This document shows positions 11,341 through 21,592 of a DNA stretch of 64,000 nt, piece by piece. The stretch lies in NCBI RefSeq assembly GCF_000226095.1, contig NC_016477.1:1612001-1676000 (forward strand), written 5' to 3'. Source of the stretch: Thermothelomyces thermophilus ATCC 42464. Taxonomy: Eukaryota; Ascomycota; Sordariomycetes; Sordariales; Chaetomiaceae. How positions within the stretch are numbered: the first letter of the stretch is position 1; the number at the start of each line of letters is the position of its first letter. A model generated the notes under the pieces. It saw nothing but the letters and a program-made list of their open reading frames with translations. It made no database searches and was not told the origin of the DNA. The translations under genes and the position numbers were made by a program.

Positions 11341-13583
11341 TTAAAAGGCCCTGACCCATTTCCTAGGTTAGTGCTAACCTCTTCGGTTATTTGGCTAATA
11401 GCGGCTTCATCGATTGTACTTATTTCTATAAGCCATTAAGTACTTATAGCTTCCTACTATTAGGTCTATTCTGCTTTCTATTGTACGTGCTATAGCTTTA
11501 TCTAAAGCTCCTAAATTCGTAACTTCTTTTCATCTATATAATAGAGGCAATCGTTACTCTAGCACGAGTCCTATATATCTCGTCCTATTTCGTAGTACCT
11601 AGGCTAGGCTTATTTTGGAACTGCTGTAATGCCTTCTGGACTCTAAGCTTCGATTTTCTAGAGTAATTCGGCCGCTCTATTTCCTATATTGTAGACCTAT
11701 TCCATAGGGTAGAGGCTTCTATCCTCATTTCCTTGTCAGATTGGCTAGTAATTGTTTTCGAATTTGTCGTAGAAGTGATATTAGCATTCGTATACTATAT
11801 ACTAGAACTAGGGCACTTATATATATGCCTTATATCGAGAGTATAGTCGTATAGCGTTGCCTAAGAGGTATTAGAATTCTTTCCTAAATCTTTCCTACCA
11901 TATATAGACTATAGGTACTCTAATGCTAAGATAGGAGTATTTCTTCTAGTAGCTTTCCTATATATACTTGTCTTTTTTATAGCTCGTATATATAAACTAG
12001 TATTCTGGATTCCGTATATCGTTACTAAGTTACTAGTTATTAAGGTACTTAGTATAGCTATTAGGCCTATTATATATCATAAGCTATTCTCCTTTAATAG
12101 TTTCTATAATATATTAGAGTTCCCTTATCTCGTCCCTTATTTTATTACTCTACTAGGTAAGTCGAGTTAAGCGTCTATCCTATTTGTATAACTCTATATT
12201 AAGTCGGAAAACTTTATTATAGTACTATTCGATTCGTTCCTAGAGGAATAGAACATTAGGTCTAGGTCTTTTATTTCTTTAGGTATTAGTTATCTATAAT
12301 CTATCCTACCTCTATATAACTGTAAAACCCTACTACCTTAAGGCTAGGAGAATCGAAATTAGTAGTATATACTCTCTTGCCGTGTTCTATTCGGCAAGAC
12401 CTATCTCTAGGTCTATAATGACTAGTTCGGAGTACAGTACTTGTTCGTCTTTACCGTTACTATTATATCCGAGACTGTCCGTATTACTACCCCTGTCTTT
12501 ATAACTTATAGCCGCTACTTCGATAATGTCCTTAATAGTTTCGTCAATAACCGTAATTTCCTTTTTAGGGACTGTCTTCTATTCTTTCTTCGGGCTTTAA
12601 CATTCCTACTTATAATGTTCTTTCTTTCTATAGTTATAGTAGGTAATATTAGACTTATCTTTAGTCGTCTTCTTCTAGTCTTGCTTTTATACTATATCTA
12701 TATCTATAGCTCTAAGGTATATCCTATACGAGGTACTAACGTATGCTCGCTTTTTCTTGTCATTAGCCTTAATTATAGTTCTATTTATTTAGCCTTATTT
12801 CTATTACTCTTATATATAGAGTCGATTATCGATTCTAATAACCTATATAATATATTTATCTAAGGTCTTAGGCTAATTATACTTATATAGCTTATCTTTA
12901 ACCTTTTCCTTTAAGCTATTATAGAATAATTATATTAATACCTTATTATTAAGCTAAGACTTAAGTATATCCTATCTAAACTATATAATATAGGAGGCTA
13001 CTAATTTAGTCTATTAGAGATTAGCAAGTCTTTTTTATATATAAATCTTTCTATTTTTGTCGCCAAAAACCTTCTAAAGCTCTTTTTTAATACAGTTATA
13101 AGATCGAAAGACTACCTATATAAACGCATCTTAATTGTCTTTATCTTCCTTAATAAGATAGTCATTCTATATAGGTTCAAACTATCTAAGTACCTTACCC
13201 TTTAGTCTTATAGCTATATAGAGGACTTTAGCTTTATTATCCAGAAACTTGTCATTATTAAGCTAGAAGTAGGATCGAAGGTTCGTCAGGAATCCTATAA
13301 AATCCTCCTTAGTTCCTCTATATTTACTAGGTAGTTTAATCTTAATATAGCTTACTTTGGCAGTCTCGAGCGCCTTGATTTTAGCGTAGGCCTCGTTAAC
13401 TAACTTCTATAAGTACTTTTCGCCGTTCTCGAGTTCCTTAATTCGGGCTTAAGCAGCCTTATCTCTCTAGTCTAACTTCTAGATCTGCTGCTAGAGTTAA
13501 CCAAGCTAGGCAAGCAGCTGTTTGGCCGTAACGTTAGTAGCTATATCGATGTCGAGGTCAAAGTTACCTCCGTTCTGAACCAT
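11322..13583 (-). pseudogene. Copy A: degenerate gag
   Basis: On the minus strand this runs from an ATG at 13583 to a TAA at 11322-11324 and is colinear with the gag of copy C. It is saturated with TpA dinucleotides and stops. The plus-strand open frame at 12441-12863 is a shadow caused by C depletion. The frameshift heptamer and hairpin are mutated here. Confidence 0.88.
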
Positions 13584-13610
13584 AATAGAACAAAGGGAGT
13601 GGTAATAACG

Positions 13611-13985
13611 TGTGACAAACCTAACTTAGACTTCTTCTGAAAGGGTTTAGACGAAGGTAGATTAAGAGGGACAAGTAGGCAGGTTGTCTAAGGGATTTGA
13701 TGAAGCTAAAGGGTTTATAATAATACTAGAGTTATCTTTTATAGTAATTAGCAATGCTTGGTATAAGTACTGTGATTATAATTATTACTACTAGTAAACT
13801 CTTAGAGTCTACCTAATAAGTGACTAGCTAGCTATATATATATAATTGTCTGTCCCTCTTTAATAGTTATTATTAGTACTATTTCTCCTTTTACCTTGTG
13901 ATTCTGTGTTGTCTACGGTAATATATTATTATTACTAGTAAAGACCTTAGTCTTAGCGGTGATAATCTTCTGATTAGTCTATTAA
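13611..13985 (-). repeat. Copy A 5' LTR, inner part (interrupted by copy C)
   Basis: Reverse complement of the copy C LTR, starting tgtgac at 13611 and broken at 13985 by copy C. The remainder is at 21593-21663. Joined length is about 446 bp versus 449 bp in copy C, so A belongs to the same LTR subfamily as C. Confidence 0.92.
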
Positions 13986-14434
13986 TGTCACGAATAAGCA
14001 CATGGGCGGCCTGGCAGGCTGCAGCCAGGACGCGGGACATTCCGACAGCCAATCACTTGACGGACCAACCAGAAGATTATCACCGCCAAGACTAAGGTCT
14101 TCACTGGTGATAATAACATGTCACCGTCGACAACGCAGAATCACGAAGTGAAAGGAGGAGTGGTACTGGTGATAACTATTGAAGAAGGACAGACAATTAT
14201 GTATATATAGCTAGCTAGTCACTCGTTATGGTGGACTCTGGGAAGTTCACCAGTGGTAACAATCACAATCACAGTACTCATACCAAGCATTGCTGATTAC
14301 TGTGAGAGACAACTCTAAGTGTTGTTGTGAACCCTTTGGCTTCACCGAATCCCTCAGACGACCTGCCTGCTTGTCCTGCTTCACCCACCTCCGTCTGGAC
14401 CCTTTCAGAAGAAGTCTGAGTTGGGTTCGTCACA
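13986..14434 (+). repeat. 5' LTR of copy C
   Basis: 449 bp, TGTCAC...GTCACA. Visible signals are a CCAAT box in the first 80 bp, a TATA run (gtatatatag, 14201-14210) and a proposed transcript start near 14252. U3 is therefore roughly the first 266 bp. Confidence 0.96.
14201..14262 (+). promoter_or_regulatory. LTR promoter: TATA box and proposed R start / self-primer
   Basis: A TATATATA run at about 14202-14209 lies ~45 bp upstream of AGTGGTAACAA (14252-14262). These 11 bases are perfectly complementary to the bases 2 nt downstream of the LTR (14437-14447). In Tf1 the first 11 nt of the mRNA fold back on the primer-binding site, so a start at or near 14252 is predicted. The start site is inferred. 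Confidence 0.6.
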
Positions 14435-14436
14435 CG

Positions 14437-14447
14437 TTGTTACCACT
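14437..14447 (+). other. Primer-binding site for self-primed reverse transcription
   Basis: TTGTTACCACT starts 2 nt after the LTR and is the exact complement of LTR bases 14252-14262. No TGG-starting tRNA-type site adjoins the LTR. Self-priming by an mRNA 5' end is established for Tf1 and proposed for related fungal elements such as MAGGY and skippy. Copies A and B keep the pairing (AATAA with TTATT). Confidence 0.7.
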
Positions 14448-14461
14448 CCCTTTGTTCTGTC

Positions 14462-16723
14462 ATGGTTCAGAACGGAGGAGACCTCGACCTCGACACCGAC
14501 ATGGATACCAACGTCACGGCCGAACAACTGCTCGCCCAGCTTGGTCAACTCCAGCAGCGGATCCAGGAGTTGGACCAGAGAGACAAGGCTGCTCAAGCTC
14601 GAATCAAGGAACTCGAGAACCGCGAAAAGTACTCGCAGAAGTTGGTCAACGAGGCCTACGCCAAAATCGAGGCACTCGAGGGCGCCAAAGCGAAGCGCAT
14701 CAAGATCGAACCACCTGGCAAATACGGAGGAACCAAGGAGGATCTCGCAGGATTCTTGACAAACCTCCGATCCTACTTCCGGCTCAATGACGACAAGTTT
14801 CCGGACGACAAAGCCAAAGTCCTCTACGCAGCCACGAGACTAGAGGGCAAGGCACTCAGATGGTTCGAGCCTACGTGGAACGACTATCTCACCGAGGAAG
14901 ACGAAGACGACCGAGACGCGTTCACGCAGGCAGTCTTTCGATCCTACGACCGTTTCGAAGAAGAGCTTCGGAAGGTCTTTGGCGACAAAGACGAGAAAAT
15001 CCATGCGCAAGAAAGACTCGCCAATCTCCGACAGACCAAGTCAGCAGCCTCCTACGCCGCACAGTTCAGACAGGACATGCTCAAGTCTCAGCTTAACGAC
15101 GAGGCGTTGATGCAATTGTTCTATAACGGCTTGAAGGAAAAGGTCAAGGACGAGCTGTACAAGTACGATCGGCCTGAGACTCTGGACGAATACATCGCGC
15201 AGGCCATCAGGATCGATGATCGACTCTACGCACGAGAGCAGCAGAAACGAGGTCGAATGAACGGAACCACGGTTAAGGCCAACGACAAGAAAAAGCGAGC
15301 GTACGTCAGTACCTCGTACGGGACGCACCCCGGAGCCATGGATGTGGATGCAGCGCAGAAGCAGGACCAGAAGAAGACGGCCAAAGACAAGTCTAATGTT
15401 ACCTGCTACAACTGCGGAAAGAAAGGGCACTACAAGCGAGAATGCCGAAGCCCGAAGAAAGAATGGAAACCAACCCCTGGAAAGGAAATTGCGGCCATCG
15501 ACGAAACCACCAAGGACGTCATCGAAGTAGCGGCCACGAGCTACGAAGACAAGGGCAGTGACACGGACAGTCTCGGACACGACGGCAACGGTGAAGACGA
15601 ACAAGCACCGTACTCCGAACTGGTCACTGTGGACCCAGAGACAGGTCTTGCCGAATGGGACATGGCAGGAGAATATGCACCGCCAGTTTCGATTCTCCCA
15701 GCCTTGAGGCAGTGGGGTTTCACAGTCACGCAGAGGCGGGATGGATCGTGGACAACCGACACCCAAGGAATCGAAAGACCCGGACCCAATGCTCTATTCC
15801 TCCAGGAACGAATCGAATGGTACCGCAACGAAGTTTTCCGACTCAACACGGAACTGCGCGAACGGGATGGGCGCTTGACTCGACTCGCCCAGCAGAGCGA
15901 AGAGATGAAGGACGAAATGAGGGAACTCCGACGTATCGTGGAAGCCATCAAAGGAGAACAGCCTGTGACATATGATGGGCCCGATAGCTACGCCGAGTAC
16001 CTTGACGATCAGCAACTCAGCAACGACGTGCGGAACCCAGAATACCAGTTCATGCGCGCGAACCGCGGAAAAGACGAACGCACGTGGGAAAGCTACTGGA
16101 AGAAACACTCCTATGTCAGCACTGGAGTACCTACGGTCCACGTACAATGGGAAGGATTCGGGAAAGAATTCCAATACCTCCCAGGCGACGCCATGCGACT
16201 GCACCCTCGACACGAGGCACATGCGCAAGTGCCCTGGTTTCAGTGTGTGGCACACGAATGTCGATATCACTTCCGCGACAAATTCGAAAACAATCATTGG
16301 CCGACCCGACAGGAAAACGGGGACGGAGGCTTACGCCCTGTGGAATGGGTCTACGATGCAGGAAACAGAGCGGCCGAATTGCTCTGGAAGATCGAAGCCC
16401 GCAATTCAGAAAGCATCACGATAGTTCCAAGACGAGCCTGGCCTAGGCACTGCGGAACCGGACGAGACACATGGGACTCGTGCTGGAGCAACGATTGCCT
16501 CTATCACGCGGACGAAAAGAAATTGCGAATTCGGGAGCTTCAGACGAAGCTATGGCACGCACGACGGAAAGCAGAACGGACCCAATGGTGGGAAGCCGCA
16601 AGCACTCAATGGCTCACGGAAATGAGCACGATCGACGAAGCCGCTATCAGCCGAACAACCGAAGAGGTCAGCACTGACCTGGGAAACGGGTCAGGGCCCT
16701 TCGAGGGGCCCGGAAACCATTAA
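14462..16723 (+). CDS. gag: Gag of copy C (753 aa) with zinc knuckle and long C-terminal extension
   Basis: This is the structural capsid/nucleocapsid protein of the retrotransposon. An N-terminal coiled coil (about residues 20-75, QLQQRIQELDQRD) precedes a Retrotrans_gag-like helical region (about 85-265, with LEGKALRWFEPTW). A CCHC zinc knuckle, CYNCGKKGHYKREC, spans residues 315-328. About 425 residues follow, with acidic stretches, a second coiled coil (about 450-500) and two Cys/His clusters near residues 595-620 and 664-683. That tail is unusually long: capsid/NC proteins of MAGGY-type elements usually end soon after the knuckle. The ATG is the first in the transcript. Its last 46 bases overlap the pol frame, which is reached by -1 frameshifting. 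Confidence 0.9.
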   Translation: MVQNGGDLDLDTDMDTNVTAEQLLAQLGQLQQRIQELDQRDKAAQARIKELENREKYSQKLVNEAYAKIEALEGAKAKRIKIEPPGKYGGTKEDLAGFLTNLRSYFRLNDDKFPDDKAKVLYAATRLEGKALRWFEPTWNDYLTEEDEDDRDAFTQAVFRSYDRFEEELRKVFGDKDEKIHAQERLANLRQTKSAASYAAQFRQDMLKSQLNDEALMQLFYNGLKEKVKDELYKYDRPETLDEYIAQAIRIDDRLYAREQQKRGRMNGTTVKANDKKKRAYVSTSYGTHPGAMDVDAAQKQDQKKTAKDKSNVTCYNCGKKGHYKRECRSPKKEWKPTPGKEIAAIDETTKDVIEVAATSYEDKGSDTDSLGHDGNGEDEQAPYSELVTVDPETGLAEWDMAGEYAPPVSILPALRQWGFTVTQRRDGSWTTDTQGIERPGPNALFLQERIEWYRNEVFRLNTELRERDGRLTRLAQQSEEMKDEMRELRRIVEAIKGEQPVTYDGPDSYAEYLDDQQLSNDVRNPEYQFMRANRGKDERTWESYWKKHSYVSTGVPTVHVQWEGFGKEFQYLPGDAMRLHPRHEAHAQVPWFQCVAHECRYHFRDKFENNHWPTRQENGDGGLRPVEWVYDAGNRAAELLWKIEARNSESITIVPRRAWPRHCGTGRDTWDSCWSNDCLYHADEKKLRIRELQTKLWHARRKAERTQWWEAASTQWLTEMSTIDEAAISRTTEEVSTDLGNGSGPFEGPGNH
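16681..16711 (+). promoter_or_regulatory. -1 ribosomal frameshift signal (GGGAAAC plus hairpin)
   Basis: The heptamer GGGAAAC (16681-16687) is in the X XXY YYZ phase of gag (G GGA AAC). A 6-nt spacer (16688-16693) and a GGGCCC/GGGCCC hairpin (16694-16699 with 16706-16711, 6-nt loop) follow. The pol frame is -1 relative to gag, is open from 16678, and gag stops at 16721-16723. All parts of the canonical signal are in place, so Gag-Pol is predicted to be a fusion of about 2000 residues. Confidence 0.85.
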
Positions 16724-19700
16724 CGCCCGTGCAGCGGCAAGTGGTAGCGCAGTACAGGAGGAACTGGCGCAAGGGACCACTATATCGAGACCTCCCGGCA
16801 GAAACATGGGAAATCGCTGCAATCTTTGGACGACGGCGGCAAGACAAGCGACTGTGGATAACAGCACAATGGAGACAGCACGAAATGCTCGCACTAGTGG
16901 ACAGTGGAGCAGAGATGAATCTGATTTCGCCGACACTTGTGAATCAGCTACGGATACCCTGGAGAATGAAGCGGAAGCATGGCATAGTCAAAGGGCCATT
17001 TCCGACGCAATGGGTACGCAGAGAGACCGAACCGATCGACATCACTGTGGCAGGGAAGACCACAGCAGTCGTATTCAGCATCGTGGACATGGGCAACGAC
17101 AAAGACATGATATTGGGGTTACCATGGCATGAAGATTACGACCCGGACATCAGCTGGAAGAATGGTGGCCACCTGCGACCCCGAACGGAGTCGTATTCGA
17201 CCAGCAAGATGGGGAGCGCGCAAGGATCGCGAGCGGACGATGCTCAAGGAAAGGCATGTCCTACGGATCCACCGCAAGAGACGGACAGTGGCAGGCAGAC
17301 CACTACGGACTCTGGAAGAGGCGGCACAACGACATCGATATTGCGACAGGAGGAACGAGCTGAATCGCCGATAGCTGTTCTCTCCGTTGACGAATGCGGA
17401 GCACTGCAATTGGAGCAGTGGGTTGAGACAGGAGAAATCGCCAGTATCGCCATGGACGGAACCAAGTTCGCATACTATCAGAAAACCGAGAGACGAGACA
17501 AGACTGGGGAAGTACCGAAGGAGTATGAGGGACACCCAGCATTCGAACCGAAACATCTGGAAGGATTACCAGAACACGGCCCATGGGATCACGAGATCAA
17601 GCTCAAGGAAGGAGCACGACTGAAGTTCTTCAAGATTTACCACACGAGCCAGACGCAGAACGAAGAACTTAAGCGATATTTGGAGGAGAACCTTCGAAGA
17701 GGACATATCCGCCCGTCGACATCGCCAGCAGGCTACCCAATCCTGTTTGTGCCAAAGAAAGACGGAAAGCTACGGTTATGTGTCGACTATCGGCAACTCA
17801 ACGAACAGACCGTGAAAAACCGATACCCGTTACCGCTGATCTCACGGCTCCGAGATCAGTTGGCAGGAGCCCAATATTTCACGCGTCTTGACTTGCCATC
17901 GGCCTACAACCACATACGGATCAAAGAAGGCGACGAGTGGAAAACGGCCTTTAGGACACCCTATGGCCACTACGAGTACCTCGTCATGCCATTCGGACTT
18001 ACGAACGCGCCGGCAACGTTCCAAGCCCTGATTGATCAAGCTATCCAACCCTTTCTCGACAAATTTGCGGTATGTTATCTCGACGACATACTCATCTTCT
18101 CCAAGACGATGGACGAACACCGGAGGCACGTGAAAGCAGTGCTGGACGCGCTGCACGCGTACAAGCTATCAGTCAACAAGGGAAAGAGCGAATTCCATGT
18201 CAGGAAGACAGTCTTTTTGGGATACGAAATATCCCCCGGACAAATCCGGATGGAACCTTCAAAGGTTGAAGCCATCAAGAATTGGCCACAACCAGCGTCA
18301 GCCACGGAAGTACGAAGTTTCATCGGATTTGCGAACTTCTACCGGATGTTCATCAGGAACTTTGGAGCGATCGCACGACCTTTGCACGAACTCACCAAGA
18401 AGAATGCTGAATTCCAATGGGAAGAGCAACACGAGCAAGCATTCACGCAAATCCGCGACGCCATTACCGAAGATCCAGTACTGGTACTGCCAGACCCCAA
18501 GAAGCCATTCGAGGTGGAAACGGACGCTTCAGACTACGCCATCGGAGGACAATTGGGACAACGAGACGAACAAGGGAAGCTACATCCTGTAGCCTTCTTT
18601 TCAAAGAAGCTCGACGGACCACGTCTCAATTATCCGATCCACGACAAGGAACTACTTGCGATTGTCGAAGCTTTCAAGGAATGGCGACCATACCTCAGCG
18701 GCACGATTGAACCGGTACAAGTGTATACGGATCACAAGAACTTGCGATACTTCACGACGACGAAGGAACTCAACGGACGACAAATACGATGGGCAGAATT
18801 CCTCGCGGAATTCAACTTCGAGATCCGCTACAAGAAGGGCAAAGAAAACGCACGAGCAGACATTTTAAGCCGACGAACGGATCACACGAAAGGACGAACG
18901 GGAACAACACCACCGTTGTTCAAGGAACGAACAGACGGGACGTTGCACCACGAAACGCAGACACCCGTGGAAGATGATCCACTTGACTCGTTCCTAGAAT
19001 GCTGCGCAATCTTTCGAGAGGAAAGGATCAACGAGGCACAGTATCAAGCAGCACCCGGACCAGTGGTACCTGACGGAGTGGAAGAAAGAGATGGGAAACT
19101 CTGGTACCGAGACAAAGCGTACATCCACGACAAGGATCAACAGCTGCGAATGATTCGAGAACTCCACGAATCAAAACTCGGAGGACACAAAGGAGTCACG
19201 AAGACTGTCGCACAAGTCAAGAAGCACTACGACTTTCCACAGTTAACGGCACGAGTTAAGGAAGTCGTACGGAACTGCGACATCTGCAATCGGAGCAAAA
19301 CGGCACGACACAAGCCGTACGGGCTACTTCAGCCACTACCAACAGCTGACAAACCATGGAGTTCAGTTGCGATGGACTTCATCACGAAGCTGCCAGAATC
19401 CAAGGACACAGCCACAGGAGTGACCTACGACAGTATTCTTACTGTAGTAGATCGCCTGACTAAGTGGGCATATTTCTTTCCCTACAAGGAGTCCTGGACA
19501 GCGGAACAGTTGGCAGACGTGATCTATCGGCAAGTTGCATCAGTGCATGCTTGGCCGCAAGAATGGATCACCGACAGAGACACCAAGTTCGCATCGAAGT
19601 TCTGGCAAGCGTTAATGCAACGATTAGGCGTCAACAGCAAGCTGTCAACGGCATATCACCCGCAGACCGACGGACAAACGGAGCGACTAAACCAAGTTGT

Positions 19701-20472
19701 TGAGCAATACCTCCGCTCTTACGTCAATTACCAACAAGACGACTGGGTCATGCTGTTACCAACAGCACAACTCGCCTACAACACGACGCCGACAGAAACG
19801 ACCAAAGTCACACCGTTCTTCGCGAACTACGGATATGAAGCAGACCTTAGGCAAGGACCAGAGGTCACAGTGCCGAGAGCAGCAGTCAAAGCAGAACAGA
19901 TGCACGCACTGCATGAAAAGCTCAAAAAGGAACTCGAGTTTGTCAAGACCAGAATGAAGAACTACTACGACAAACACAGGCTCGAGGGACCTCGCCTAGA
20001 GAGGGGAGACAAAGTCTACCTGATCGCACGAAACTTGCAAACCAAACGACCAAGCACGAAGCTGGACTTCAAGAAGGTCGGACCCTTCGTTATCAAAGAA
20101 CGAATCTCGACATCCAACTACCGACTATCGTTACCGTCATCTATGCGACTACGGACGGATGTTTTTCATATTTCACTTCTCGAACCAGCACCAAAGAACG
20201 CCAAGGTTGCCACGCACATCGAAGCAGAGGACGAAGAGGAAGAATGGGACGTCGAAGAAATTCTGGATTCACGCATCATCAACGGGGAACTGCAGTACCT
20301 GGTCAAATGGCTTGATTTTGGACCAGAGGACAACTCATGGGAACCAGTCAAGAATTTGAACTGCCCTGAGAAACTGGAACAGTTCCACCGGCAGAATCCG
20401 GATCGACCAAAGGAAAACCCGGGACAGAACCAAAGACGGCGCCCCAGTCGACAGCATCGACGGCATCATTAA
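16687..20472 (+). CDS. pol: Pol of copy C: PR-RT-RNase H-IN-chromodomain (about 1261 aa after the shift)
   Basis: This polyprotein copies and integrates the element. Counting residues from a GTG at 16729, the protease motif LVDSGAE has its Asp at 58, reverse transcriptase spans about 330-500 with YLDD at 450-453, and RNase H spans about 590-720 (ETDASDYAIGG). The integrase has an HHCC finger ending CDICNRSK and a D,D-E core (MDF, TDRD, QTERLNQ). A chromodomain closes the protein (WDVEEIL, YLVKWLDFG, NSWEP). Chromodomains of this class read histone marks and direct integration to chromatin such as H3K9me3 (family knowledge). No ATG fits the start and the frame is open only from 16678, so translation is expected by frameshift at 16681-16687. 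The 3' end overlaps the antisense gene by about 125 bp. Confidence 0.92.
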   Translation, partial: RVRALRGARKPLTPVQRQVVAQYRRNWRKGPLYRDLPAETWEIAAIFGRRRQDKRLWITAQWRQHEMLALVDSGAEMNLISPTLVNQLRIPWRMKRKHGIVKGPFPTQWVRRETEPIDITVAGKTTAVVFSIVDMGNDKDMILGLPWHEDYDPDISWKNGGHLRPRTESYSTSKMGSAQGSRADDAQGKACPTDPPQETDSGRQTTTDSGRGGTTTSILRQEERAESPIAVLSVDECGALQLEQWVETGEIASIAMDGTKFAYYQKTERRDKTGEVPKEYEGHPAFEPKHLEGLPEHGPWDHEIKLKEGARLKFFKIYHTSQTQNEELKRYLEENLRRGHIRPSTSPAGYPILFVPKKDGKLRLCVDYRQLNEQTVKNRYPLPLISRLRDQLAGAQYFTRLDLPSAYNHIRIKEGDEWKTAFRTPYGHYEYLVMPFGLTNAPATFQALIDQAIQPFLDKFAVCYLDDILIFSKTMDEHRRHVKAVLDALHAYKLSVNKGKSEFHVRKTVFLGYEISPGQIRMEPSKVEAIKNWPQPASATEVRSFIGFANFYRMFIRNFGAIARPLHELTKKNAEFQWEEQHEQAFTQIRDAITEDPVLVLPDPKKPFEVETDASDYAIGGQLGQRDEQGKLHPVAFFSKKLDGPRLNYPIHDKELLAIVEAFKEWRPYLSGTIEPVQVYTDHKNLRYFTTTKELNGRQIRWAEFLAEFNFEIRYKKGKENARADILSRRTDHTKGRTGTTPPLFKERTDGTLHHETQTPVEDDPLDSFLECCAIFREERINEAQYQAAPGPVVPDGVEERDGKLWYRDKAYIHDKDQQLRMIRELHESKLGGHKGVTKTVAQVKKHYDFPQLTARVKEVVRNCDICNRSKTARHKPYGLLQPLPTADKPWSSVAMDFITKLPESKDTATGVTYDSILTVVDRLTKWAYFFPYKESWTAEQLADVIYRQVASVHAWPQEWITDRDTKFASKFWQALMQRLGVNSKLSTAYHPQTDGQTERLNQVVEQYLRSYVNYQQDDWVMLLPTAQLAYNTTPTETTKVTPFFANYGYEADLRQGPEVTVPRAAVKAEQMHALHEKLKKELEFVKTRMKNYYDKHRLEGPRLERGDKVYLIARNLQTKRPSTKLDFKKVGPFVIKERISTSNYRLSLPSSMRLRTDVFHISLLEPAPKNAKVATHIEAEDEEEEWDVEEILDSRIINGELQYLVKWLDFGPEDNSWEPVKNLNCPEKLEQFHRQNPDRPKENPGQNQRRRPSRQHRRHH

Positions 20473-21011
20473 TCTGTGACGAGGGCATAGCAGGCGTCTC
20501 TTGCCGCTCAACCTCCTCCAACTCGTCCAAGGTCGACAGACCACGCGCCACCATGTCGGCACCTTTCTCCACCAAAAACTCCTTCTGCTGACGAAGACGC
20601 CGGAGCCGCGCAAGCTTTTCGGACAACTCGCGCTGGGCTTCTTCCAGACGGCGTTGAGATTCATCCAGCTCAAGTTCGGCACGACGTTCAGCATCCTTGA
20701 TACGACGCTGCTCCTGGAGAATGCGATCCACTAGAACGAACATCAGGAATCACATTCAAAAAAAAAAAAAAAAAAAAAAAAAAGAAGAAGAAAACGTGCT
20801 TACAGGAAGAAAGCGGTATGCCAGAGCCATCGCAAGAACGACCTCGACGAACGCAGGCTTCGCAACGCTTCGTACGCGCGATCATTTTGCAAACGAGGCC
20901 TTGCGACGCGCACCAAGAGCAAGGCATAACGACAAAACCGTTCTCAGCGATGTTCTGAGCAAGGGAAGCACGGTAACGTGCAGAATGCGACTTCCGTTTC
21001 TCTATCGGCAT
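20348..21011 (-). CDS. Antisense Zn2Cys6-like / coiled-coil protein inside copy C (196 aa, one intron)
   Basis: This is a minus-strand gene between pol and the 3' LTR. Exon 1 is 21011-20804; the intron is 20803-20731 (GTAAGC donor, long T tract, CTGAT branch, TTCTAG acceptor, 73 nt); exon 2 is 20730-20348. Splicing keeps the frame and removes the homopolymer. The Cys spacing is C31-x2-C34-x6-C41-x8-C50-x2-C53-x6-C60, which fits the Gal4-type Zn2Cys6 rule. A linker and a strong charged coiled coil (about 72-125) follow, then an acidic tail with AVDWGAVFG. A zinc cluster followed by a dimerisation helix is the layout of fungal zinc-cluster DNA-binding proteins; DNA binding is inferred. Copy B has a diverged homologue in the same place. 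Host gene capture or an accessory ORF are both possible origins. Confidence 0.72.
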
Positions 21012-21122
21012 TTTGTCAACATGGCGACCACGACGCAGAAACAGGGAGAATGCAGTACTCACAAGCGAAGGGTTGTTGGCGCTATTTGAAACGGCCTAAG
21101 AGGGCTTTCGGGTCGAAAGCCT

Positions 21123-21134
21123 TGAAGGAGGGGC
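21123..21134 (+). other. Polypurine tract of copy C
   Basis: The purine run gaaggagggg ends 5 nt before the 3' LTR (21139) and is the expected plus-strand primer. Copy B has aaagaggggg at the same place. Confidence 0.7.
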
Positions 21135-21138
21135 ATCG

Positions 21139-21587
21139 TGTCACGAATAAGCACATGGGCGGCCTGGCAGGCTGCAGCCAGGACGCGGGACATTCCGACA
21201 GCCAATCACTTGACGGACCAATCAGAAGATTATCACCGCCAAGACTAAGGTCTTCACTGGTGATAATAACATGTCACCGTCGACAACGCAGAATCACGAA
21301 GTGAAAGGAGGAGTGGTACTGGTGATAACTATTGAAGAAGGACAGACAATTATGTATATATAGCTAGCTAGTCACTCGTTATGGTGGACTCTGGGAAGTT
21401 CACCAGTGGTAACAATCACAATCACAGTACTCATACCAAGCATTGCTGATTACTGTGAGAGACAACTCTAAGTGTTGTTGTGAACCCTTTGGCTTCACCG
21501 AATCCCTCAGACGACCTGCCTGCTTGTCCTGCTTCACCCACCTCCGTCTGGACCCTTTCAGAAGAAGTCTGAGTTGGGTTCGTCACA
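21139..21587 (+). repeat. 3' LTR of copy C
   Basis: 449 bp, identical to the 5' LTR except T at 21222 (C at 14069). It is followed by the TSD attaa. Confidence 0.96.
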
Positions 21588-21592
21588 ATTAA

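What the first reader, a model, noticed from the sequence alone, without database searches (positions are those of the whole stretch)
20348..21011. Retrotransposon carries an antisense, spliced gene with Gal4-type zinc-cluster spacing and a coiled coil
Seen: the minus strand of the intact Gypsy copy holds a 196-aa frame over one 73-nt intron with GTAAGC donor, CTGAT branch point and TTCTAG acceptor. Splicing removes a long T tract and keeps the frame. Six Cys follow C-x2-C-x6-C-x8-C-x2-C-x6-C, which satisfies the Zn2Cys6 rule, and a charged coiled coil follows, as in zinc-cluster transcription factors. Known: antisense additional ORFs between pol and the 3' LTR occur in some plant and fungal LTR elements. 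Inference: this element encodes its own sequence-specific regulator from the opposite strand. I do not recall such a zinc-cluster case described.
Basis: partly seen in the sequence, partly recalled or inferred. Interest (0 to 1): 0.85.

Follow-up and report, generated by a model that had tools for sequence, protein, structure and literature searches.

The report
Retrotransposon's antisense spliced zinc-cluster gene
A fungal jumping gene carries on its opposite strand a small spliced gene for a protein that looks like a Gal4-type zinc-cluster protein; relatives of this gene occur in many other fungi, so it is very likely a real gene, but what it does for the element has not been shown.

Summary
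The minus strand of an intact Ty3/gypsy chromovirus (Thermothelomyces thermophilus ATCC 42464) carries a two-exon, 196-aa gene between pol and the 3' LTR. It is not chance. All 18 young copies keep both exons intact, while the intron varies from 66 to 80 nt in all three phases. Two further element families in this genome show the same antisense arrangement beside the chromodomain. Searches find relatives across Sordariomycetes, in Pseudogymnoascus and in Sclerotinia, many with the same cysteines, exon junction and coiled coil. AlphaFold models of two relatives retrieve mostly Zn2Cys6 transcription factors from the PDB (11 of 14 hits), all with weak scores.

Two corrections. The Gal4 likeness is incomplete: the basic C2-C3 recognition loop is missing, the second half is the basic one, and no scanned member reaches Pfam's cut-off (best 19.5 of 21 bits). 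And antisense genes at this place are not new (brtn of Boty in Botrytis), though I could not compare BRTN's sequence.

Most likely it is an antisense-expressed, dimeric, Zn2Cys6-like nuclear protein that regulates its own element, working like HTLV-1 HBZ. Gene and fold are well supported; DNA binding and regulation are inferred.

The parts
13986..14434 (+). 5' LTR (449 bp), preceded by target repeat ATTAA (13981-13985)
   Evidence: one difference from the 3' LTR
14462..16723 (+). gag ORF (capsid, CCHC zinc knuckle)
   Evidence: PF03732, PF19259, PF00098
16729..20472 (+). pol ORF (protease, RT, RNase H, integrase, chromodomain)
20245..20391 (+). chromodomain of pol; its end overlaps the 3' end of the antisense gene
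   Evidence: PF00385
20804..21011 (-). antisense gene, exon 1 (69 codons + 1 nt; ATG at 21011)
20832..20921 (-). six-cysteine zinc-cluster-like segment, residues 31-60
   Evidence: coordinates by arithmetic
20731..20803 (-). intron, phase 1, GTAAGC..CTGAT..TTCTAG, with T tract; 66-80 nt in 18 young copies
   Evidence: same junction in relatives
20348..20730 (-). antisense gene, exon 2 with stop codon
20555..20730 (-). coiled-coil segment (about residues 70-128)
   Evidence: for the window protein; for a relative
21139..21587 (+). 3' LTR, followed by target repeat ATTAA (21588-21592); place of a possible antisense promoter (inferred)

Best explanation
The element carries a genuine protein gene on its antisense strand between pol and the 3' LTR. 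It is presumably transcribed from in or near the 3' LTR towards pol (inferred), spliced once at a conserved phase-1 intron, and encodes a small protein made of a basic N-terminus, a Zn2Cys6-like double zinc site, a long coiled coil and an acidic C-terminal tail. Conservation, layout and predicted fold are shown by computation. I infer that the protein forms a dimer in the nucleus, binds DNA chiefly through the basic second half of the zinc cluster, and tunes transcription or chromatin of its own element (most simply at the LTR). It would then work like HBZ of HTLV-1, also an antisense product started in the 3' LTR with a DNA-binding-factor architecture. My step-wise estimates: real gene 0.97; Zn2Cys6-like fold 0.85; DNA binding 0.6; self-regulation at the LTR 0.4.
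For: Translation and splice sites. 18 of 18 young copies have intact exons around a length-variable intron. 110 relatives with one profile, 130 with another (120 listed). Of 217 proteins held, 108 fit a Zn2Cys6 spacing, 18 show the first half, 46 the second half, 45 neither. In-frame inserts lie at the same exon junction in ten relatives (read by eye). AF2 of a relative: pLDDT 83.4, a short helix at each CxxC and one long helix. Foldseek: 7 of 9 hits are Zn2Cys6 factors; for a second relative 4 of 5. LAC9 superposes at 1.7 and 1.8 A over all 33 residues of its chain. Zn_clus is the most frequent Pfam match among relatives at E up to 1: 20 of 40 and 9 of 16. Antisense position beside a chromodomain: 29 of the first 30 matches of family 1 and 13 of the first 50 of family 2, none on the same strand; four chosen places of family 3. 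Three of four gene-model extensions (two Corynascus, one Staphylotrichum) read as the reverse strand of a chromodomain.
Confidence: 0.7

Rival explanations
1. The protein is real and zinc-bound but is not a sequence-specific regulator: it acts as a nuclear adaptor, for instance tethering the pre-integration complex or a Pol chromodomain complex to chromatin, or it binds nucleic acid without sequence preference.
For: The canonical basic C2-C3 loop is missing (mean net charge +1.35 in 109 sequences against +4.19 in 16 host domains); the 3' LTR shows no excess of CGG pairs. The review PMC7264820 (passages) discusses accessory roles in retrotransposition for plant antisense ORFs.
Against: The second half is strongly basic and highly conserved (C-x2-C-V-x-R-G-R-S-C-D); zinc cluster, coiled coil and acidic tail together are the plan of transcription factors (recalled).
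Confidence: 0.25
2. What matters is the antisense RNA (dsRNA and silencing of the element); the protein is secondary.
For: Antisense transcripts of LTR elements may feed silencing, as discussed in PMC7264820 (passages).
Against: An RNA effect would not require a protein conserved at 45-61% identity with its cysteines, exon junction and coiled coil across genera.
Confidence: 0.08
3. A recently captured host gene carried as a passenger.
For: The host has many Zn2Cys6 genes (88 Zn_clus matches listed).
Against: Three element families in this genome, and elements of other genera as far as three gene models show, carry it in the same place and orientation. I did not make a separate search for a host parent gene, and the 150 matches were not each checked for context.
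Confidence: 0.02
4. A chance open frame without function.
For: The MYCTH_ records of this genome among the hits are short (66-121 aa), so the source annotation shows fragments only in what I saw.
Against: Cross-species conservation and intact exons in 18 of 18 young copies.
Confidence: 0.02

Closest known systems
brtn, antisense gene of Boty-like Ty3/gypsy elements of Botrytis cinerea (Zhao et al. 2011, Virology 417:248; paper not held, seen only as a citation and in passages of citing papers)
   Same: Additional gene antisense to gag-pol in a fungal chromodomain element, between pol and the 3' LTR (citing passages in PMC8365987, PMC7264820, PMC4227169).
   Different: I could not obtain the BRTN sequence, so homology, zinc cluster and intron are unknown to me. 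A Sclerotinia sclerotiorum relative of our family exists (SS1G_06438) and an antisense gene in Boty is also reported from that fungus, so identity of the two gene families is plausible but untested.
Fungal Zn2Cys6 (Gal4-type) transcription factors, Pfam PF00172
   Same: Six-cysteine spacing, two CxxC-helix units in a predicted relative, following coiled coil.
   Different: Small (196 aa); no match above the Pfam cut-off; the basic C2-C3 loop is replaced, and the C5-C6 loop is the basic one.
Plant antisense aORFs (Grande gene23, RIRE2, Retand, PvRetro13)
   Same: Position and orientation; nuclear roles proposed (PMC7264820, passages).
   Different: The review reports an SMC domain (PvRetro13) and a transposase-28 domain (Retand); 'zinc' and 'transcription factor' do not occur in its main text.
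HBZ of HTLV-1
   Same: Antisense provirus gene; transcription starts in the 3' LTR; a basic leucine zipper factor that inhibits Tax-mediated transcription (PMC5797633, passages).
   Different: bZIP, not zinc cluster; no relation implied; start site and regulation here are untested.

Membership tests
Zn2Cys6 / Gal4-type zinc cluster (PF00172) | Cysteine spacing C-x2-C-x6-C-x5..12-C-x2-C-x6..9-C (rule recalled; this is the pattern I ran) | tested here: met
   Window protein met; 109 of 218 including the window protein, 65 of them the exact window spacing
Zn2Cys6 / Gal4-type zinc cluster (PF00172) | Score above Pfam's gathering cut-off (21 bits) | tested here: not met
   Window protein: no PF00172 among its five families. 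Relatives at E up to 1: 20 of 40 (best E 0.0011 = 19.5 bits, P0028) and 9 of 16 (best E 0.0091 = 16.5 bits, P0087)
Zn2Cys6 / Gal4-type zinc cluster (PF00172) | Basic recognition loop between Cys2 and Cys3 (role recalled) | tested here: not met
   Mean net charge +1.35 (n 109) against +4.19 in host domains (n 16); K/R at loop position 4 in 0.11 against 1.0
Zn2Cys6 / Gal4-type zinc cluster (PF00172) | Binuclear-cluster fold | tested here: inconclusive
Zn2Cys6 / Gal4-type zinc cluster (PF00172) | Two zinc ions bound; sequence-specific DNA binding | not testable with these tools
   Needs protein
Antisense additional ORF between pol and 3' LTR (brtn type) | Position and orientation, repeated in other copies | tested here: met
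Antisense additional ORF between pol and 3' LTR (brtn type) | Homology to BRTN itself | not tested
   Paper and sequence not held; no protein named BRTN among the rows listed
Antisense additional ORF between pol and 3' LTR (brtn type) | Antisense transcription | not testable with these tools
   No RNA data
Ty3/gypsy chromovirus (host element) | LTRs, target repeat, gag, PR-RT-RH-IN order, chromodomain | tested here: met
HBZ-like antisense provirus regulator (analogy only) | 3' LTR antisense promoter and effect on LTR transcription | not testable with these tools
   Needs RNA and reporter assays

The most novel reading that the evidence does not exclude
Chromoviruses of many Sordariomycetes and some Leotiomycetes share an ancient antisense gene for a distinct zinc-cluster class in which the DNA-reading half has moved from the first to the second Cys3 unit. 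The protein is an element-encoded, sequence-specific regulator of the element (a fungal counterpart of HBZ), and it would be the first antisense LTR-retrotransposon gene with a recognisable transcription-factor-type DNA-binding domain.
Probability: 0.35. Interest if true: 0.8.

Novelty: new variant of a known kind. Interest (0 to 1): 0.62.

Why it matters
Antisense genes between pol and the 3' LTR have been noted in plants and fungi for years without a known function (PMC7264820, passages). A conserved zinc-cluster-like domain gives a concrete, testable biochemical hypothesis for one such family, and relatives in many fungi supply natural variants. If the inferred function holds, it would show that self-regulation by an antisense DNA-binding factor, known from HTLV-1, also exists in retrotransposons. 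It would also explain why pieces of these genes appear as hypothetical or 'Zn(2)-C6' proteins in fungal annotations.

Tried and rejected
Selection among genomic copies: I examined the first 70 of the 150 exon-1 matches scored, the window itself being one. Of the other 69, 17 are nearly identical to the window and 52 differ almost only by C>T/G>A, i.e. RIP (36-191 such changes, 3-23 T>C/A>G, 0-8 transversions; a few aligned over part of the 1201 bp only). So no dN/dS was attempted.

DNA context from other fungi: two scans of viral contigs found 62 and 40 pattern matches, none confirmed; I found no fungal DNA collection among the tools. As a substitute I tested whether relatives' C-termini can be antisense readings of a pol tail. 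Extensions of P0014, P0021 and P0023 score 107-110 against a maximum of 56-73 in 20 shuffles each; P0003 does not beat its shuffles (57 against 67); the window's own C-terminus, a control that must succeed, scores 106 against 71. Of 30 hand-picked C-termini, 19 beat all 15 of their shuffles, 11 do not (among them both Pseudogymnoascus sequences, P0100 and P0103); only two of the three frame offsets were tried. That second test is partly circular, since homologous antisense peptides are bound to be compatible.

Literature searches for a described antisense zinc-cluster case: (all valid searches on this question); none of the rows listed shows one by title or start of abstract, but most subscription papers, including Zhao et al. 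2011, are not in the library. Muszewska et al. 2011 (PMC3248453, term search of the text only) contains neither 'antisense' nor 'Boty'; the Verticillium TE paper (PMC3441728, term search only) has no 'antisense'.

Full report
WHAT IS THERE. The window lies on contig C6 of a 38,744,216-base genome in 7 contigs. Protein records named Thermothelomyces thermophilus ATCC 42464 lie on contigs of exactly the lengths of C1, C2, C4, C6 and C7, so this is the host. An intact Ty3/gypsy element occupies 13986-21587: two 449-bp LTRs with one difference, 5-bp target repeat ATTAA, gag 14462-16723 and pol 16729-20472 ending in a chromodomain. Its last part overlaps the end of pol on the other strand. Between 20473 and 21011 all six unspliced frames contain stops (2-4 on the plus strand, 4 in each minus frame), so conservation of the antisense frame there is not a by-product of pol.

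MORE THAN CHANCE. (1) Young copies: 150 exon-1 matches were scored in the genome, 18 of them with 100% amino-acid identity. Those 18, the window included, all give the intact frame after splicing, with 0-1 substitutions and no exon indel, while the intron runs from 66 to 80 nt, with lengths modulo 3 of 0, 1 and 2 in 9, 4 and 5 copies. The T tract is a slippage hot spot, so the variation itself is expected; the point is that the protein stays in frame in all 18 only if the tract is removed. (2) Other copies: of 69 further copies aligned (the first 70 of 150 matches, less the window), 17 belong to the young set and 52 carry 36-191 C>T/G>A changes with 0-8 transversions, the mark of RIP. They are degraded and say nothing about selection. 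(3) Relatives: 15 proteins with the single sequence, 110 with the first profile and 130 with a second (120 listed), together 217 held. Named sources include Chaetomium globosum, Canariomyces, Corynascus, Staphylotrichum, Apiospora, Verticillium, Metarhizium, Colletotrichum, Cryphonectria, Pyricularia, Gaeumannomyces, Sclerotinia and Pseudogymnoascus; many others are unnamed metagenome proteins. Of 217, 108 fit a Zn2Cys6 spacing, 18 show only the first half, 46 only the second half and 45 neither. By eye, most of those 45 begin in or just before exon 2; others are fragments from this genome, members with one residue more in a loop, or members with a Cys replaced.

GENE STRUCTURE IS CONSERVED. 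Ten relatives from metagenome sources, presumably called without splicing, carry an in-frame insert at the exon junction of the window gene, whose first residue is R, G or S, as expected from one exon base followed by a GT donor in phase 1 (read by eye: P0004, P0016, P0017, P0019, P0033, P0034, P0036, P0038, P0040, P0054). Proteins from named annotated genomes (for example P0003, P0021, P0023, P0027, P0030, P0032) run through the same place without an insert, as spliced models would. The Pseudogymnoascus branch and its metagenome relatives have no insert there either, so that branch may lack the intron.

THE ARRANGEMENT IS SHARED BY SEVERAL FAMILIES. In this genome a second set of places matches P0044, a metagenome protein 40% identical to the window protein; every place listed carries stops. 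A third set matches P0021 of Corynascus at up to 77% in exon 1 and 62% in exon 2, against 61-62% for family-1 exon 1; one place (C4:323588-324171) has no stop in either exon match. Chromodomain matches (149 listed, 150 of 330 candidates scored) lie on the opposite strand next to 29 of the first 30 family-1 matches, 396-424 bp from exon 1, and next to 13 of the first 50 family-2 matches, overlapping by 25-31 bp. None lies on the same strand in either set; for the other 37 of family 2 no chromodomain match was listed. For family 3, four chosen places show exon-1 and exon-2 matches 32-38 bp apart, then a chromodomain 10 bp further on the opposite strand. For other fungi no DNA was available, but the C-terminal extensions of three gene models (Corynascus P0014 and P0021, Staphylotrichum P0023) can be read as the reverse strand of the window's chromodomain with scores of 107-110 against shuffle maxima of 56-73 (20 shuffles each); a fourth, P0003, does not. 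Of 30 chosen C-termini, 19 beat all 15 shuffles, 9 of these 19 at one and the same pol-tail segment (partly circular).

WHERE IT DEPARTS FROM GAL4. In 16 host Zn_clus domains the loop between Cys2 and Cys3 has mean net charge +4.19, with K/R at its fourth position in all; in 109 antisense-family sequences it is +1.35 and 0.11. The loop between Cys5 and Cys6 is +1.0 in the host set and +2.63 here, with R/K at loop positions 2, 3 and 5 in 0.91, 0.82 and 0.72 of the 82 sequences with a six-residue loop. The motif C-x2-C-V-x-R-G-R-S-C-D is conserved in 90% or more of the rows at each named position in the main branch. As the two halves of a zinc cluster are pseudo-symmetric (recalled), the second half may have taken over DNA contact; or the protein may not read bases at all. 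I therefore call it Zn2Cys6-like and do not file it as a PF00172 member.

MECHANISM. Shown by sequence: gene, intron, layout, family, predicted fold of relatives. Inferred: transcription from the 3' LTR side (a palindromic TATATA at 21355, could serve either strand; not tested), dimerisation by the coiled coil, nuclear entry, DNA contact by the basic half, and an effect of the acidic tail (net -9 over residues 129-196) on transcription. The best working model is an element-encoded regulator of the element. HBZ of HTLV-1 shows that such a design exists: antisense, started in the 3' LTR, inhibiting Tax-mediated transcription (PMC5797633, passages). The main rival is a nuclear adaptor that helps integration or chromatin tethering without base reading.

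WHAT IS KNOWN. Zhao et al. 2011 described the antisense gene brtn in Boty-like elements; I saw only citations and passages of citing papers (PMC8365987, PMC7264820, PMC4227169, PMC5987419). One of these reports a Monilinia transcript similar to both Pol and BRTN. PMC7264820 places brtn with plant antisense ORFs whose functions are unknown. No protein named BRTN appeared among the rows listed, though a Sclerotinia relative did (SS1G_06438; its first Cys is Tyr). Several relatives bear the automatic name 'Zn(2)-C6 fungal-type' (P0003, P0023, P0050, P0111, P0127). In my searches I found no paper that joins the two facts, judged by titles, starts of abstracts and the passages read. So the kind (antisense 3' gene) is known; the zinc-cluster identity, its breadth, the shared exon junction and the shifted basic half appear new.

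VERDICT. Observation confirmed; interpretation partly supported; a new variant of a known kind, with good grounds for experiment.

Noticed in passing
window 12000-13979: Just upstream of the intact element lies an inverted, diverged copy of the same kind of element (repeat arms 75-86% complementary to the intact copy).
   Followed up: no
window 13986-21587 and L009-L026: Eighteen nearly identical copies coexist with many RIP-mutated ones; the 52 older copies aligned also differ from the window by 3-23 T>C/A>G positions each, so the young lineage may itself descend from a lightly RIP-mutated ancestor.
   Followed up: partly
window 20731-20803: The intron's T tract varies in length between otherwise nearly identical copies (intron 66-80 nt), a natural tag for telling which copies are transcribed.
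   Followed up: yes
G000 C1:6989633-6989782 and 14 more places: Another chromodomain family with 15 equal-scoring matches, mostly in a 1287-aa open frame, shows by eye no antisense zinc match nearby in the capped lists.
   Followed up: no
protein P0106 (Pseudogymnoascus destructans VC83_07319): Gene model with a precomputed PF11917 (DUF3435) match together with the zinc-cluster and coiled-coil segment; perhaps a fused gene model at an insertion, perhaps a real fusion.
   Followed up: no
proteins P0005, P0015, P0057, P0066, P0067, P0069, P0077, P0083, P0088, P0109: Fragments of this antisense gene (66-121 aa) are annotated as separate hypothetical proteins (MYCTH_ records) in the source genome, apparently often from degraded copies and with other splice choices.
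   Followed up: partly
window 21186-21197: The 3' LTR holds one CGG-N6-CCG inverted pair, the form of some zinc-cluster target sites (recalled); not above chance.
   Followed up: partly
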